Source: Lacticaseibacillus paracasei subsp. paracasei
GTDB taxonomy: Bacteria > Bacillota > Bacilli > Lactobacillales > Lactobacillaceae
DNA length: 64,000 bases
Assembly (NCBI RefSeq): GCF_000829035.1
Contig: NZ_AP012541.1
Span: 372,001 to 436,000 of the forward strand
Direction of reading: 5' to 3'
The notes beneath the pieces were generated by a model. That model searched no databases, was not told where the DNA came from, and saw only the letters and a program-made list of their open reading frames with translations. The translations under genes were made by a program, and so were the position numbers. Positions 19,996 through 59,174 of the stretch are shown piece after piece (position 1 is the first letter of the stretch; each line of letters opens with the position of its first letter).

Positions 19996-22239
19996 TTGAA
20001 TCAGAAAAATCAAGTCAGCGGGGATCATTATCGGTTTACCGTCATTACAAATAAGATGATCCGCATGGAATATCAATCTGCCGGTCAGTTTGAAGATGCA
20101 ACGACGCAAACAGTGGTTAATCGCGATTTTGGCAAGCCGGATTTTCAGGTGACCCGTGATCAAGAAGGTTTTGCTGTCCAAATCGAGACAGATTCATTTC
20201 ACCTCTATTATCGCGGTGGTGAATTCAACGGGGCCAACTTGTTCATTGATACAAAATACAATTTTCAGACGCACTATCCGCGTTGGCATTACGGTGATCC
20301 CGATGTCAAGAACTTGCTTGGAACGGCCCGAACGTTAGATGGCGCAGATGGTGCTGTATCGCTGGATTCAGGGATTATGTCCAAAGACGGTTTTACTATT
20401 TTGGATGACTCAAACAGTATGCTGCAAGCCGGCACATCGATCAGGAATCGGCCTGTTGAGGAAATTGATCTTTATGGCTTTGCATACGGTCACGACTATC
20501 GCAAGGCTTTGTATGATTATTATCAGCTCACTGGATTTCCGCCGATGGTACCACGGTTTGCGTTAGGTAATTGGTGGAGTCGCTTCTATCCTTATACGCA
20601 AGAAAGTTACCTTGCGCTCATGGATCGTTTCCAAAAAGCCGGTATTCCAATAGCGGTCGCTGTCTTGGATATGAACTGGCATGTCACAGATATTCCGACA
20701 ACGTATGGCAGCGGTTGGACTGGATATACTTGGAATAAAAAGCTGTTCCCGGAACCAGAAAAATTATTGGCAACCTTACACGCACAAGGCAAACATGTCA
20801 CGCTCAATGTGCACCCAGCTGCTGGTATCCGCCCTTCTGAAGTGCAATATCCAGAAGTTGCTAAGGCTGTCGGCATTGATCCAGCCTCTAAGCAGCCAGT
20901 GTTGTTTGATTTAAACAATCGAAAATTTGTTCAAGCCTACTTTAACTTGGTTCATCATCCGCTTGAAAAACAGGGGATTGATTTCTGGTGGCTTGATTGG
21001 CAGCAGGGCGCTGCACGATCACGTGCGCAGATTGATCCATTATGGTCGCTTAACGTGCTGCATTTTCTGGATCAGGTGAAAGAAAAGAAGGATCAAGCGC
21101 TGATCTTGTCACGCTATGCTGGACCTGGCAGTCACCGGTATCCGATTGGGTTTTCTGGTGATTCCGTTGCCAGTTGGCGATCATTAACTTTCCAACCGTA
21201 CTTCACAGCAACGGCCACGAATATTGGCTACACTTGGTGGAGTCATGATATTGGCGGGCATATGCACGGCAGCTATGATCCTGAATTGTCACTACGCTGG
21301 CTGCAGTTCGGTGTTTTCAGTCCGATTATGCGGTTGCACAGTTCGGACAATCCGTTTATGGGCAAGGAACCATGGCAATATGATCTGGAAACGGATAAGA
21401 GCATGACACGTTTCGTGCGATTGCGCGCTCAGCTTGTCCCTTATCTGGCGACGGCGGATGTGTTGACACATCAGCAAGGCATGCCATTGATTGAACCTGT
21501 TTATTATCGATATCCAGAAGTAAAAGAAGCTTATCAGTTCAAAAATGAGTACTTCTTCGGGTCAGAAATGCTGGTCGTACCGATCACAGCGCCTAGTGAT
21601 GACACAACGGGCTTAGCCAGTGCAGAAGGTTATGTGCCAGCCGGTACCTGGACCGATTTATTTACCCATCAGCAATATACTGGTCCGGCAGTTGTTAAGT
21701 TCTATCGCAACAAGTTTCAGTATCCGGTTCTTGTGCGCTCAGGCGGCATCGTGCCATTAGCTGATGACGCTATGGCGGCCATTGATGATCTGCCCGAAGC
21801 TATGACCGTTACGCTTTTCCCTGGCAAGCAACATGCCTATGTATTACATGAACAGACAGCGGCTGGGAAAGCGCAAACCAAATTTTCTTGGGATCCCGTG
21901 GCCGGTACATTTGGGATGACCGTTACTGATCCTAATCACATCATACCCGAGAAGCGGACCTATCAATTACAAATTGTGGGCGTTAAAACCACAATGAAAC
22001 CATTCTCGGGACGATTTGATCAGCGACTGACACTTGATTTAGAAGCCGAAGATCAACAGGCAATTAAACTGCAGCATATCTTTGCAATTCTGCAACATGC
22101 TAAAGTTGCGTTTGATCTGAAAAAGCAGTTGTGGCAAAGCGTTAACGATATGCCAGCAAGTAGAGCAGCATTAACTGTTGCCAGTCTCGCACCAGCAACA
22201 CTGAGCGATGCACTTTTGGAGATACTTTTGAATGATTAG
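19996..22239 (+). CDS. GH31 family alpha-glucosidase
   Basis: This 747-aa intracellular glycosidase has the GH31 core: LGNWWSRFYPY near residue 193, catalytic nucleophile Asp334 in WWLDWQQG, and acid/base Asp389 in GFSGDSVASW, followed by the C-terminal beta domains. The best start is TTG 19996 with GAGAGGTTGAT upstream; no ATG fits. It lies between the EIID and EIIA genes, so it is cotranscribed with the PTS. It probably hydrolyses alpha-glucosidic bonds in the sugar (or sugar phosphate) brought in by this transporter. There is no signal peptide. Confidence 0.92.
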   Translation: MNQKNQVSGDHYRFTVITNKMIRMEYQSAGQFEDATTQTVVNRDFGKPDFQVTRDQEGFAVQIETDSFHLYYRGGEFNGANLFIDTKYNFQTHYPRWHYGDPDVKNLLGTARTLDGADGAVSLDSGIMSKDGFTILDDSNSMLQAGTSIRNRPVEEIDLYGFAYGHDYRKALYDYYQLTGFPPMVPRFALGNWWSRFYPYTQESYLALMDRFQKAGIPIAVAVLDMNWHVTDIPTTYGSGWTGYTWNKKLFPEPEKLLATLHAQGKHVTLNVHPAAGIRPSEVQYPEVAKAVGIDPASKQPVLFDLNNRKFVQAYFNLVHHPLEKQGIDFWWLDWQQGAARSRAQIDPLWSLNVLHFLDQVKEKKDQALILSRYAGPGSHRYPIGFSGDSVASWRSLTFQPYFTATATNIGYTWWSHDIGGHMHGSYDPELSLRWLQFGVFSPIMRLHSSDNPFMGKEPWQYDLETDKSMTRFVRLRAQLVPYLATADVLTHQQGMPLIEPVYYRYPEVKEAYQFKNEYFFGSEMLVVPITAPSDDTTGLASAEGYVPAGTWTDLFTHQQYTGPAVVKFYRNKFQYPVLVRSGGIVPLADDAMAAIDDLPEAMTVTLFPGKQHAYVLHEQTAAGKAQTKFSWDPVAGTFGMTVTDPNHIIPEKRTYQLQIVGVKTTMKPFSGRFDQRLTLDLEAEDQQAIKLQHIFAILQHAKVAFDLKKQLWQSVNDMPASRAALTVASLAPATLSDALLEILLND

Positions 22240-22328
22240 GCCTGAAATGACCGTCCTTTGGTCATTGCGGATAAGGTCATTAGGTGCAGGTTTCTGGTCT
22301 GGTAAACGTGGTTAGAGGAGGAAGATTC

Positions 22329-51755: not shown

Positions 51756-51793
51756 TTGATTTCCTCCTAACCGCGCCAGCTCAGGCTCTTAAA

Positions 51794-51829
51794 CGCGTTC
51801 ACCAGCCCGGTTTCTGGGCTGGTGAACGC
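51794..51829. terminator. Perfect hairpin after the epimerase gene, sharing sequence with the 57.6-57.8 kb repeats
   Basis: GCGTTCACCAGCCC pairs with GGGCTGGTGAACGC around a short loop. The block GGTTTCTGGGCTGG followed by GAACGC is shared with the hairpin tails at 57647-57800 with few differences. Confidence 0.7.
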
Positions 51830-51833
51830 TCTC

Positions 51834-56316: not shown

Positions 56317-56445
56317 ACTATTTTGACATGATCGTTGTCATGAAGGCTGGCAGCGATCACGTTGTATGAAGGCACTTCGCTTTAAAACTTCTAGGAAAGC
56401 GTGAGCTTGTCATTGCACCAGCAAACGTGTGAAGGAGGAAGTATT

Positions 56446-57573
56446 TTGGACGACTTATCTGAGTTTGTCGACCAAGTCCCATTGTTGGATCATCATTGCC
56501 ATTTTTTGATTGACGGCAAGGTACCGAATCGTGACGACCGGCTCGCGCAGGTATCAACGGAAGCAGACAAAGATTATCCGATTGCCGATACCAAAAATCG
56601 ACTGGCTTATCACGGCTTTTTAGCCTTGGCTAAGGAGTTTGCGCTTGACGCAAACAATCCATTAGCGGCCATGAATGATCCCGGCTATGCGACCTACAAC
56701 CATCGGATTTTCGGCCATTTTCACTTTAAGGAGCTACTTATTGACACTGGGTTTGTGCCGGATGATCCGATTCTTGATCTTGATCAGACGGCAGAGCTCG
56801 TTGGTATACCAGTGAAGGCGATCTATCGGCTTGAAACGCACGCCGAAGACTTCATGCTGGAACATGATAATTTTGCGGCTTGGTGGCAGGCGTTCAGTAA
56901 CGATGTGAAGCAGGCCAAGGCCCACGGGTTCGTTGGGTTCAAATCCATTGCTGCTTATCGGGTTGGACTGCACCTTGAACCGGTCAACGTGATTGAGGCA
57001 GCAGCTGGATTCGATACGTGGAAGCATTCAGGCGAAAAGAGACTGACTTCCAAGCCGTTGATTGACTACATGTTGTATCACGTTGCGCCGCTCATAATCG
57101 CGCAAGATATGCCGTTGCAATTTCATGTTGGTTACGGTGATGCTGATACCGATATGTATCTTGGCAATCCGCTGCTCATGCGCGACTACTTGAAAGCTTT
57201 TACCAAAAAAGGCTTGAAAGTGGTGCTGTTACATTGTTATCCATACCATCGCGAAGCCGGATATCTTGCCAGCGTGTTTCCTAATCTGTACTTTGATATT
57301 TCACTGTTGGATAACTTAGGGCCAAGTGGGGCCAGTCGGGTTTTCAATGAAGCTGTCGAATTGGCACCATATACGCGCATCCTATTTGCCTCCGACGCCA
57401 GCACCTACCCAGAAATGTACGGGTTGGCAGCACGGCAGTTCAAGCAAGCCTTGGTGGCACATTTTAACCAATTGCCATTCGTTGACCTCGCCCAGAAAAA
57501 GGAATGGATCAATGCCATCTGCTGGCAAACCAGTGCCAAGCTCTATCATCAAGAGCGTGAACTGCGCGTTTAG
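56446..57573 (+). CDS. FluG-N-terminal-like amidohydrolase
   Basis: This 375-aa metallo-hydrolase has the N-terminal metal motif LLDHHCHFL (HxH) and a TIM-barrel layout with His in LQFHVGYGD and VVLLHCYPYHREAG and metal-binding Asp in ILFASDASTYPE. It corresponds to the amidohydrolase half of FluG-like proteins. I place the start at TTG 56446, seven bases after AAGGAGG; the frame is open to GTG 56401, which has no site. It is cotranscribed with the GS-like gene. Together they suggest making and cleaving a gamma-glutamyl amide or related compound. Confidence 0.8.
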   Translation: MDDLSEFVDQVPLLDHHCHFLIDGKVPNRDDRLAQVSTEADKDYPIADTKNRLAYHGFLALAKEFALDANNPLAAMNDPGYATYNHRIFGHFHFKELLIDTGFVPDDPILDLDQTAELVGIPVKAIYRLETHAEDFMLEHDNFAAWWQAFSNDVKQAKAHGFVGFKSIAAYRVGLHLEPVNVIEAAAGFDTWKHSGEKRLTSKPLIDYMLYHVAPLIIAQDMPLQFHVGYGDADTDMYLGNPLLMRDYLKAFTKKGLKVVLLHCYPYHREAGYLASVFPNLYFDISLLDNLGPSGASRVFNEAVELAPYTRILFASDASTYPEMYGLAARQFKQALVAHFNQLPFVDLAQKKEWINAICWQTSAKLYHQERELRV

Positions 57574-57681
57574 AAACCGGAGCATAAGCGGCCTTAAGCC
57601 TAAATGGCCGGGTTTTGGCCATTTAGGCTTAAGGTCCTTATGTGGAGGTTTCTGCGCAAGTGAACGCGTTTAAAAGAGAGC
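57572..57681 (+). repeat. Tandem structured element, unit A
   Basis: AGAAACC (57572-57578) pairs with GGTTTCT (57647-57653), CATAAG pairs with CTTATG, and an inner 18-base perfect stem (CCTTAAGCCTAAATGGCC with its complement) closes on a short loop. The tail GTGAACGCGTTTAAAAGAG follows. Unit B repeats the outer parts with a different but still self-complementary inner stem. There is no T run, so it is not an ordinary terminator. Confidence 0.75.
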
Positions 57682-57697
57682 GCGATTCAGCTCGGTT

Positions 57698-57803
57698 AGA
57701 AACCAGAGCATAAGTGGGCACAAGTGCGATGGCCGTTCTTTGGCCATTGTGTTTGTGGTCCTTATGTGGAGGTTTCTGGGCTGGAGAACGCGTTTAAAGA
57801 GGA
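57698..57803 (+). repeat. Tandem structured element, unit B
   Basis: AGAAACC (57698-57704) pairs with GGTTTCT (57771-57777), CATAAG with CTTATG, and the inner arms (CACAAGTGCGATGGCC region) pair with GGCCATTGTGTTTGTG. The tail GAGAACGCGTTTAAAGAGGAG includes the only ribosome-site-like sequence for the next gene. Compared with unit A, the inner stem differs on both strands, keeping pairing. Confidence 0.75.
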
Positions 57804-57818
57804 GTTCCTTCACTAATC

Positions 57819-59174
57819 ATGCAAAAACGTAAAAAATTAACCTTACTCGAGGTATTCGGTCTCTCGATAGCCATGGTTGCCCCAACTGGCGCCATGTCCT
57901 TCAACACGGCAAGTGCCGCCGCCAATGCAGGCATCAATATGCCCATTGCTTTCTTGCTTGGTGGGATCGGCGTGTTATTCGTTGCGATTTCTTTTGTCGA
58001 ACTTGGCAAGCGCATTCCCGGTGATGGGTCAGCCTATGCTTATAATGCCAAAGCGCTTGGCGAAAAGGCGGGCTTCATTTCCGGCTGGCTGCTCGTGTTG
58101 ACGTACGTGACCTTTGTTTTCAGTTCGGGCGCCATTGTCGGCAATTTCGCTGACGTGTTTTTAAGTCATTTTGGTATTCATTTACCAGTCAACTTGTACA
58201 ACATCATTGTGCTGCTGCTTGGCGGCTGGCTTAGCCATAAAGGCATCGAATTCTCGACAAGGCTAACGCTGGTGCTTGAGCTGTTGGCGGTTTTGGTGCT
58301 GAGTGTCCTGACTGTCGTGATCATTTTCTCAGGTGGTCGCAGCGGCAATTCAGTTCAGCCGTTTATTCCACAACCGCATATGGCGACCGGCCTGGGGATG
58401 GGCATGGTATTTGCTTTGATGTCTTTTGCCGGCTTTGAAGGCTCGGCGACGATTGCGCCACGGGCTACCCATCCGCGCAAAGCGATTAGTATTGCTTTGC
58501 TGGGTGCCGTTAGCTTTGCAGCAATTTTCTATTTTCTTGTCAGTTACGCCGAAGTCATCGGTTTTGGTTCCGCCCACATCGGCGATCTTGCGAAAAGTAC
58601 CGCGCCAATGAACTTTCTTGCGACCCATTATCTAGGCACGAACGCCGCAATTTTCATGGACTTTGCGGCGATGGTTAGTTATTTTGCCTGCTACTTCGGT
58701 GCGCTCAACGCCGGCGCTTTCATGCTGGAAGCTTTAGGCAAAAGTGGCTATCTGCATCCTTGGCTGGCAGGACTATCAGGTGACAAGCAGACCCCGACGC
58801 ACGCGCTGGATGGCATCACTGGCTTAGCGTTAATCGTTTATGCGATTTTTGCAATCGGCTTAGGTGTGAGCGCCAGCGACATGTACAACTGGTTCGGAAC
58901 GATTGGCATGCTCGGCTTGCTAACGGTTTACGTGCTGGTCAACATTGGCGCCATTGTTTACTTCCGCAAAGACAAGGGGCGATCAATGTTTAAACATGTG
59001 TTGGCACCAGTCATCGGCATTCTCGTGCTCATTTACCCAATTTACACCAGTCTTTGGCCGATTCCGGCATTCCCGATGAACACCTTCCCATACATTGCGA
59101 TCATCTGGTTCCTGATCGGTCTATGGGTCGCAACCAAGCGGCGCAATGTTGAAACGAGTTTAGAAGATTTTTAA
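57819..59174 (+). CDS. APC-superfamily amino acid/amine permease
   Basis: This 451-aa protein has about twelve membrane spans and the APC start KKLTLLEVFGLSIAMVAPTG, with the GDGSAYAY segment after helix two. It probably imports an amino acid or amine for the GS-like/amidohydrolase pair. The nearest ribosome site, AGAGGAG (57799-57805), lies 13 bases upstream, longer than usual, and belongs to the tail of hairpin unit B. Confidence 0.88.
   Translation: MQKRKKLTLLEVFGLSIAMVAPTGAMSFNTASAAANAGINMPIAFLLGGIGVLFVAISFVELGKRIPGDGSAYAYNAKALGEKAGFISGWLLVLTYVTFVFSSGAIVGNFADVFLSHFGIHLPVNLYNIIVLLLGGWLSHKGIEFSTRLTLVLELLAVLVLSVLTVVIIFSGGRSGNSVQPFIPQPHMATGLGMGMVFALMSFAGFEGSATIAPRATHPRKAISIALLGAVSFAAIFYFLVSYAEVIGFGSAHIGDLAKSTAPMNFLATHYLGTNAAIFMDFAAMVSYFACYFGALNAGAFMLEALGKSGYLHPWLAGLSGDKQTPTHALDGITGLALIVYAIFAIGLGVSASDMYNWFGTIGMLGLLTVYVLVNIGAIVYFRKDKGRSMFKHVLAPVIGILVLIYPIYTSLWPIPAFPMNTFPYIAIIWFLIGLWVATKRRNVETSLEDF

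What the first reader, a model, noticed from the sequence alone, without database searches (positions are those of the whole stretch)
57572..57803. Two tandem hairpin elements with compensatory inner stems between a GS/amidohydrolase pair and an APC permease
Units A and B share outer arms (AGAAACC/GGTTTCT, CATAAG/CTTATG) and the tail GAACGCGTTTAAAGAG, but their inner stems differ in sequence on both sides and stay self-complementary (A: CCTTAAGCCTAAATGGCC type; B: CACAAGTGCGATGGCC type). Changing both strands while keeping pairing is the classical sign of selection for RNA or DNA structure. Neither ends in a T run, so they are not plain terminators. Unit B's tail supplies the only ribosome site of the permease. 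A related tail is fused to the hairpin at 51794-51829. This may be an undescribed leader RNA, a tandem regulatory element or a mobile palindromic repeat.
Basis: partly seen in the sequence, partly recalled or inferred. Interest (0 to 1): 0.72.

Follow-up and report, generated by a model that had tools for sequence, protein, structure and literature searches.

The report
Widespread hairpin repeats inserted between genes
The two hairpins are two head-to-tail copies of a roughly 120-letter structured repeat that occurs at least 150 times in this lactic-acid bacterium and recurs in relatives, so they are most likely an insertion between the two genes rather than a switch that evolved for the transporter gene.

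Summary
Units A (57552-57671) and B (57677-57795) are 119-120 nt imperfect hairpins of one architecture; their inner stems differ on both sides and still pair. They are not private to this locus: a covariance model finds at least 150 copies in the genome (capped), and hits in 61 of 201 sampled Lactobacillaceae genomes and 7 sampled genomes outside the family. Across 40 copies, 32 of 35 pairs show both-side changes, while a G·A mismatch and a bulged G stay. In own-genome stems G·U exceeds A·C 569 to 135: one strand folds. Three relatives have an empty site here and a fourth lacks the element; the permease's Shine-Dalgarno is there without it, and the upstream gene's last codons differ. Copies sit at RNA boundaries: beside a Shine-Dalgarno (21 of 119 clusters; 2% at random positions), at stop codons, after T-tracts, and after 23S rRNA in 19 of 19 rRNA operon copies found in five genomes. 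RAYT-type transposase and reverse transcriptase are missing from three high-copy genomes; the engine is unknown. Most likely: an undescribed family of non-autonomous hairpin repeats that acts, if at all, through RNA processing or stability. Not a locus-specific leader RNA.

The parts
57552..57671 (+). Unit A of the hairpin repeat (120 nt, full length)
   Evidence: R1 covariance model 121.8 bits, E 3.4e-30 (A is one of the 39 sequences the model was built from); fold -56.2 kcal/mol, z -11.2 for 57571-57653
57672..57676 (+). 5-nt linker between tandem units; 29 of 31 tandem junctions in the genome have 3-6 nt (the others -1 and 0)
57677..57795 (+). Unit B of the hairpin repeat (119 nt, full length)
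   Evidence: R1 118.8 bits, E 2.1e-29 (B is also in the model); fold -43.6 kcal/mol, z -8.2 for 57697-57777
57572..57578 (+). Unit A middle helix 5' arm AGAAACC, pairs with 57647-57653; preceded by the conserved 4-nt bulge
57592..57634 (+). Unit A inner hairpin, 18-nt perfect arms
57571..57573 (+). Stop codon TAG of the upstream gene, lying inside unit A (unit position 20-22); the gene's last codons differ from those in element-free relatives
   Evidence: empty-site comparison
57799..57804 (+). Shine-Dalgarno GAGGAG of the permease, outside the unit and present in element-free relatives
51791..51832 (-). Short form of the repeat: outer stem plus AGAAACC loop, inner hairpin missing
   Evidence: R1 30.2 bits, E 1.2e-5
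22202..22313 (+). Degenerate copy of the repeat (weak)
   Evidence: R1 22 bits, E 0.0019; 74% direct-repeat match at 22275-22316
56401..57573 (+).
   Evidence: ORF list
57819..59174 (+).
   Evidence: ORF list; matches at 96-97% amino-acid identity in 4 relatives, in three of them over part of the protein

Best explanation
A and B are two head-to-tail copies of a family of small, non-coding, dispersed hairpin repeats that I found no description of, present across Lactobacillaceae and, sparsely, in other families of the order. SHOWN: the copies fold on one strand into a long imperfect hairpin with fixed irregularities (a G·A mismatch near the base, a 4-nt bulge beginning with G, a 3x3 internal loop); the fold is kept by changes on both sides across copies and genera; the doublet is absent from the same site in four relatives; copies are enriched at the edges of RNA segments (stop codon, just before a Shine-Dalgarno, after T-tracts, directly after 23S rRNA). 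INFERRED: the doublet arrived by insertion (loss in the relatives is less likely but not excluded); the units spread as non-autonomous elements mobilised in trans by a machinery not identified here; insertions survive where they leave a stop codon and a Shine-Dalgarno working; once co-transcribed, the hairpin acts locally on RNA, most plausibly as a cut site or barrier for ribonucleases, separating the stability of the upstream and downstream messages. At this locus the expected effect is a change in the relative levels of the two flanking cistrons, not ligand sensing.
For: Copy number: 150 R1 matches in the own genome (all 150 candidates that the call scored), E <= 1.5e-14, in 119 clusters, none of mixed strand. 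Distribution: 25 of 30 Lacticaseibacillus at E <= 0.001, 61 of 201 Lactobacillaceae genomes and 20 of 40 genera at E <= 1e-6, 18 of 295 order genomes at E <= 1e-9, 7 of them outside the family. Fold: 22 of 43 pairs with both-side changes among 39 own copies found by sequence alone; 32 of 35 across 40 copies; 91.6% of cells paired against 35-46% when slid, covariation 0.784 against 0.11-0.25. Fixed G·A 35 of 40 and bulge G 39 of 40. Strand: G·U 569 against A·C 135 in 150 copies. Site: empty in G005, G006, G028 and no element in G019; 8 further sites without a copy in L. zeae or L. chiayiensis loci. Placement: 3' end next to Shine-Dalgarno plus ORF in 21 of 119 against 287 of 14196 random flank positions; 19 of 19 23S ends found in five genomes are followed by a full (13) or short (6) form.
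Against: No clean target duplication was seen and no parent transposon or engine was found, so mobility rests on empty sites and copy number; an empty site alone does not tell insertion from loss. No transcript data: processing or stability effects are inference. Copies at matching loci of two species are only 69-87% identical (63 compensated, 37 wobble, 40 broken pair changes) and sometimes of another subtype, and at 754894 the sister locus holds an opposite-strand copy, so replacement or gene conversion may mimic covariation at a locus. Orientation bias is moderate: same-direction neighbours 54 sense against 26 antisense (rough ORF calls), so a transcribed role cannot hold for every copy. 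The random-position background for the Shine-Dalgarno count includes coding sequence; tolerance of insertions between tightly spaced genes could give part of the enrichment. The copies from other genera were found with a structure model, which leans towards paired copies. Excluding positions where G·U is common, the G·U excess shrinks to 182 against 125.
Confidence: 0.7

Rival explanations
1. Plain selfish repeat: the fold is needed only for the element's own copying (recognition of a DNA or RNA hairpin by an unknown mobilising enzyme), and copies have no effect that the host selects. This works like REP/RAYT hairpins but with another engine.
For: Copies of one species resemble each other while keeping the common architecture (by eye), scattered contexts, empty sites, further repeat material within 150 nt after the array in 40 of 119 clusters against 7 before it, copies on Lacticaseibacillus and Pediococcus plasmids.
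Against: 19 of 19 23S ends found in five genomes keep a hairpin at one site; among 21 variable pairs of the 6 distinct full copies 14 are compensated and 5 include breaks. Stems are 94% paired in own copies that average 74% identity, which I judge more than decaying copies would keep; no neutral simulation was run.
Confidence: 0.35
2. Quasi-palindrome correction: template switching copies one arm onto the other, so arms change together without any selection.
For: Long, near-perfect inner stems are the substrate such correction needs; most of the varying pairs lie in helix 4, the inner stem (17 of its 18 pairs have both-side changes).
Against: The correction would erase internal mismatches, yet the G·A pair (35 of 40) and bulge G (39 of 40) persist across genera and the GGA/GCA loop in 27 of 39 own copies; G·U is tolerated more than A·C on one strand, which a DNA copying process does not predict.
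Confidence: 0.08
3. A locus-specific leader RNA or tandem riboswitch controlling the permease.
For: Position between two genes and directly before the permease Shine-Dalgarno; tandem arrangement resembles tandem aptamers.
Against: At least 150 copies in 119 places, absent from the same site in four relatives that keep the gene pair, no Rfam match at gathering score.
Confidence: 0.02
4. MITE of an ordinary DDE insertion sequence: short terminal inverted repeats recognised by a resident transposase.
For: First and last bases covary (A..T 114, T..A 30 of 150 copies), about 120 nt, mostly between ORF calls, empty sites.
Against: No clear target-site duplication at the sites read; conserved internal irregularities and inner-stem covariation are not expected of a MITE. 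A resident transposon with these ends was not searched for.
Confidence: 0.2

Closest known systems
REP / BIME elements of Enterobacteria with RAYT transposase
   Same: Dispersed, mostly intergenic, imperfect hairpins in many copies, in groups (REP features recalled)
   Different: Units are 119-120 nt, not 20-40 (recalled); no Y1_Tnp protein in the own genome or in high-copy G005 and G019
ERIC (127 bp, recalled) of Enterobacteria and NEMIS of Neisseria
   Same: Hairpin fold and size class; PMC1590033 (passages read) describes them as intergenic repeats cotranscribed with flanking genes
   Different: Sequence not aligned here; other phylum; here covariation reaches across genera and copies also sit in rRNA operons
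BOX, RUP and SPRITE repeats of Streptococcus pneumoniae
   Same: Small interspersed repeats with secondary structure, BOX with repeated modules, slow mobility (PMC3049150, abstract and one section read)
   Different: Those are over-represented between convergent genes; here 4 of 119 clusters are in convergent gaps and Shine-Dalgarno neighbourhoods are enriched
Efa elements of Enterococcus faecalis
   Same: Stem-loop repeats larger than REP, found near genes (PMC1590033, passages read)
Rfam families including Ref68 (Lacto-3 RNA)
   Same: Ref68 lies near one array in L228
   Different: The Ref68 match (L228:1824-1929) does not overlap the repeat; no Rfam family reached its gathering score on a copy in the sequences scanned

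Membership tests
REP/BIME-RAYT | Resident Y1 (HUH) REP-associated transposase | tested here: not met
   PF01797: 0 matches in own genome, G005 and G019, each with at least 121 copies; present in high-copy G006 and G028; the control rings in 5 of 14 genomes
REP/BIME-RAYT | Imperfect palindrome dispersed mostly in intergenic space | tested here: met
   (9 of 119 clusters inside rough ORF calls)
MITE of a DDE insertion sequence | Terminal inverted repeats | tested here: met
   AGAGCG..GCGTTT or TGAGCG..GCGTTA, imperfect, end bases covary
MITE of a DDE insertion sequence | Target-site duplication | tested here: inconclusive
   None clear at the empty sites read; divergence of relatives blurs 3-5 nt repeats
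MITE of a DDE insertion sequence | Parent transposon with the same ends | not tested
   No search for transposases flanked by these ends was run
Retro-element / group II intron derivative | Reverse transcriptase in the genome | tested here: not met
   PF00078: 0 matches in own genome, G005, G019; present in G006 and G028
Riboswitch or leader RNA of this operon | Tied to one locus or gene class | tested here: not met
   150 copies in 119 places in several gene contexts, three of them in rRNA operons; neighbouring genes were not annotated by function
Intrinsic terminator | T-run directly after the hairpin | tested here: not met
   Sequence after A and B
CRISPR array | Repeats separated by unique spacers of about 30 nt | tested here: not met
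   Linkers are 3-6 nt in 29 of 31 junctions
Known Rfam family | Score above gathering threshold | tested here: not met
   Window 0 matches; the matches do not overlap a copy
BOX/RUP/SPRITE class (parasitic small interspersed repeats) | Over-representation between convergent genes | tested here: not met
   4 of 119 clusters (rough ORF calls, no genome background counted); comparison from PMC3049150

The most novel reading that the evidence does not exclude
A bacterial mobile element whose folded RNA is itself the unit that is copied and placed: neither HUH hairpin transposase nor reverse transcriptase is found in three high-copy genomes, one strand's fold is conserved across genera, two end subtypes sit beside opposite-strand versions of a purine tract or Shine-Dalgarno, 3'-truncated extra units follow arrays, and each 23S rRNA end found in five genomes is followed by a copy. 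That would point to an unknown, transcript-coupled insertion route that targets RNA boundaries.
Probability: 0.12. Interest if true: 0.88.

Novelty: new variant of a known kind. Interest (0 to 1): 0.6.

Why it matters
A repeat with 150 or more copies in this genome, and hits in 61 of 201 sampled genomes of its family, matched no Rfam family, and in one published L. casei genome what look like its pieces appear in the CRISPR table as low-evidence arrays. It offers a natural series of one hairpin placed between many gene pairs and in rRNA operons, so its effect on RNA processing can be tested directly, and its engine is an open question because two usual ones are missing from three high-copy genomes.

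Tried and rejected
Locus-specific leader RNA: rejected by copy number and empty sites. Rfam identity: no family at gathering score on a copy; with loose thresholds only weak hairpin-like hits far below their cut-offs, mostly microRNA families; Ref68/Lacto-3 lies beside, not on, the repeat. RAYT and reverse transcriptase engines: families absent from G000, G005, G019; G006 and G028, also high-copy, do carry both. Phages: no match at E 1e-5. Plasmids with a copy from outside the family as query: no match. tRNA genes in five outside-family loci: none called. A target-site duplication: looked for at the empty sites, none convincing. The first regex for short forms found 0 because its length limits were wrong; corrected (3 found in the mapped 14% of the genome). 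The stretch for L139 was cut wrongly and read correctly. Not followed: a search for transposons whose ends match the unit; self-cleaving ribozyme motifs and kink-turns were considered from memory only. Paper searches: by topic, by sequence strings and for Lacto-3/Ref68; listings only, at most 20 rows each, no title pointed to a description of this repeat, but led to PMC11464305. The library misses most subscription journals. PMC2267715 and PMC1590033 were seen in passages; each names one Lactobacillus, L. johnsonii.

Full report
WHAT IS THERE. Units A and B are at 57552-57671 and 57677-57795, 119-120 nt each with a 5-nt linker. Both fold far better than shuffles. They share outer arms and tail, and their inner stems differ yet pair. 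The related short element is 51791-51832 on the minus strand: the outer stem with an AGAAACC loop and no inner hairpin. A degenerate copy lies at 22202-22313 (E 0.0019).

NOT LOCAL. BLAST of A+B in the own genome gave 62 matches, some of them the reverse strand of the same place, since the unit is near-palindromic. A sequence-only profile of A and B run on the 30 loci gave 51 distinct units; 7 lost their end in trimming and 44 remained; I left out 2 of odd length and 3 near-duplicates, which gives 39 in alignment A1. A covariance model R1 built from A1 gave 150 matches, the number of candidates scored, so 150 is a lower bound. They form 119 clusters with 31 tandem junctions (29 of 3-6 nt, the others -1 and 0) and no mixed-strand cluster. 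R1 hits occur in 25 of 30 Lacticaseibacillus genomes, five of them at the ceiling of 121, in 61 of 201 Lactobacillaceae genomes (20 of 40 genera) at E <= 1e-6 and in 18 of 295 order genomes at E <= 1e-9, 7 of them outside the family. Of 12 copies read from those calls, 11 begin AGAG and end CGTTT or CGTCT; the one from G323 (L280) does not (by eye). Named carriers from an exact-pattern scan: L. chiayiensis, L. zeae, L. suilingensis; records near the window's own genome may be left out. Fourteen plasmid records match (9 Pediococcus, 5 Lacticaseibacillus; 15 places), no phage record. No tool named the window's species; I call the five high-copy genomes the casei clade by inference.

THE FOLD. 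In A1, 22 of 43 predicted pairs have at least one both-side change. For a wider test I chose 40 copies (5 own; 35 from other genomes, out of the 70 R1 matches, leaving out antisense duplicates, weak and near-identical ones) and aligned them without structure (A3). 32 of 35 predicted pairs have both-side changes; 91.6% of cells pair against 35.3-46.0% when partners are slid, covariation is 0.784 against 0.112-0.252, and 0 of 500 shuffles reach any of the five measures. Helices 1-3 are 98-99% paired, helix 4 84.7%. Conserved unpaired features: G8·A127 in 35 of 40, bulge G18 in 39 of 40. In 150 own copies stems are 94.1% paired; G·U cells 569, A·C cells 135; outside positions where G·U is common 182 against 125, p 0.0014. 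This asymmetry says that the strand given is the one that folds. Own copies average 74% identity, so most look old. Caveat: the copies from other genera were found with a structure model; A1 was not.

THE SITE WITHOUT IT. The permease has matches in four close relatives at 96-97% identity, over the whole protein in G028 and over parts in G019, G005 and G006. DNA across the junction shows flanks meeting directly in G005, G006 and G028; G019 has about 66 nt of other sequence and no element. The empty site already has GAGGAG before the permease start. The upstream gene ends differently: its stop codon now lies inside unit A. Insertion is the simplest reading; loss in the relatives is not excluded. 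Of 41 flank-matching pairs between own clusters and the 64 fetched loci of L. zeae, L. chiayiensis and L. suilingensis, I read 9 as candidate empty sites and accept 8 (657154, 552914, 739946, 1502268, 2655330, 2994118, 2917924, 872362; alignments, no R1 hit there at E <= 1e-9); 2739141 was ambiguous. By hand I paired nine own loci with a sister copy at the matching place (10 sister copies); these are 69-87% identical, with 63 compensated, 37 wobble and 40 broken pair changes; some are another subtype, so replacement or conversion occurs. The other pairs were one-sided or unclear, or not taken further.

WHERE COPIES SIT. With rough ORF calls, flanking genes relative to the element are same-direction 54, opposite 26, divergent 21, convergent 4, inside an ORF, unresolved 5 of 119. 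The three rRNA copies are among the inside-ORF calls. The 3' end is 0-8 nt before a Shine-Dalgarno with an ORF in 21 of 119 clusters, and the 5' end is 4-10 nt from one on the other strand in 10 of 119, against 287 of 14196 random flank positions (2.0%). The window's own doublet is not among the 21, because its 14-nt spacing to the start codon exceeds the limit I set. Subtype matters: of 89 A-type clusters 20 are sense and 0 antisense; of 30 T/G-type 1 and 10 (Fisher p 2.8e-7 for antisense); left flanks carry a run of five T in 18 of 30 T/G-type against 11 of 89 A-type. In 34 of 119 clusters a long upstream ORF (at least 100 codons) ends within -30 to +60 of the unit; in 17 the stop lies inside the unit, 8 of them at the TGA at position 7-9. 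Further repeat material lies within 150 nt after the array in 40 of 119 and before it in 7; of the 40, 17 are 3'-truncated units that begin at unit position 1-3 and end by position 73, others are degenerate or nearly whole units. In L274, L279 and L283, from two genera outside the family, the copy lies directly after a gene end (the names glutamine synthetase, IMP dehydrogenase and glutathione reductase are my recognition, from no call).

RIBOSOMAL RNA OPERONS. Rfam places the end of 23S rRNA at 1497 and the start of 5S at 1696 in L151, with a copy at 1501. A 19-base pattern of the 23S end found 19 places in five high-copy genomes (5 in G000, 5 in G005, 3 in G006, 5 in G019, 1 in G028; G006 and G028 are in over 100 contigs). 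All 19 carry the repeat directly after it: 13 full, 6 short forms that fold to a hairpin. Among the 6 distinct full copies, 22 pairs are constant and 21 vary: 14 compensated, 5 changed on one side only; 5 pairs include breaks. This is the best single-site sign that the hairpin is kept in place, though exchange among operons or with other copies could also produce it.

ENGINE. Y1_Tnp and RVT_1 are absent from G000, G005 and G019, which have at least 121 copies; G006 and G028, also high-copy, have some. So neither is required for carrying many copies; past presence cannot be excluded.

MECHANISM. Shown: a one-strand-folding repeat, absent from this site in relatives, enriched at RNA boundaries. 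Inferred: mobilised in trans; surviving insertions leave stop codon and Shine-Dalgarno working; the hairpin is cut by, or blocks, ribonucleases. A known precedent for an intercistronic stem-loop that separates message stability is the B. subtilis cggR-gapA operon (recalled, from no call).

KNOWN OR NOT. No Rfam family reached its cut-off on a copy in the sequences scanned. The paper searches showed no title that points to this repeat (listings of at most 20 rows). In PMC11464305 (passages read) Table 7 lists single-spacer CRISPR entries of evidence level 1, a level that the authors say they disregarded, and several of these look like pieces of this repeat (by eye). Comparison with BOX, RUP and SPRITE uses PMC3049150 (abstract and one section); with ERIC, NEMIS and Efa PMC1590033 (passages). 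The kind is known; the family, its covariation across genera, its rRNA location and its subtype-dependent placement appear new within those searches.

Noticed in passing
L286-L304 (23S-5S spacers; own genome full copies at 261824, 822165, 2608764): All 19 23S ends found in five high-copy genomes have a full (13) or short (6) form of the repeat directly after 23S rRNA.
   Followed up: yes
PMC11464305 Table 7 (L. casei KACC92338): Several evidence-level-1 CRISPR entries look like pieces of this repeat (by eye), i.e. a likely CRISPR-finder artefact.
   Followed up: partly
G000:C1:754894 versus L087:6340-6456: The sister locus holds a copy on the opposite strand at about the same site, suggesting repeated insertion or inversion.
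   Followed up: no
G000:C1:354830 versus L107 (L. suilingensis): Flanks of 600 nt on each side are 99.3 and 100% identical, unlike other loci: recent transfer or shared mobile DNA.
   Followed up: no
Plasmids of Pediococcus and Lacticaseibacillus: Copies on 14 plasmid records (15 places), a possible route between genera.
   Followed up: no
51791-51832 minus strand; also 663606 and 2782196 in the own genome: Short forms with the outer stem only; six rRNA operons also carry short forms, so absence of the inner hairpin recurs.
   Followed up: partly
Right flanks of arrays: Some 3'-truncated units that begin at unit position 1-3 stop at about positions 16-29, before the inner hairpin; cause unknown.
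   Followed up: partly
L281, left of the copy at 1501-1619: By eye the flank looks like the 3' end of a tRNA gene, but ARAGORN called no tRNA in this locus; group II intron pieces lie nearby.
   Followed up: partly
L244:1802-2059 and 2229-2327: A T-box-like leader just below threshold and a purine riboswitch near repeat copies in another Lacticaseibacillus.
   Followed up: no
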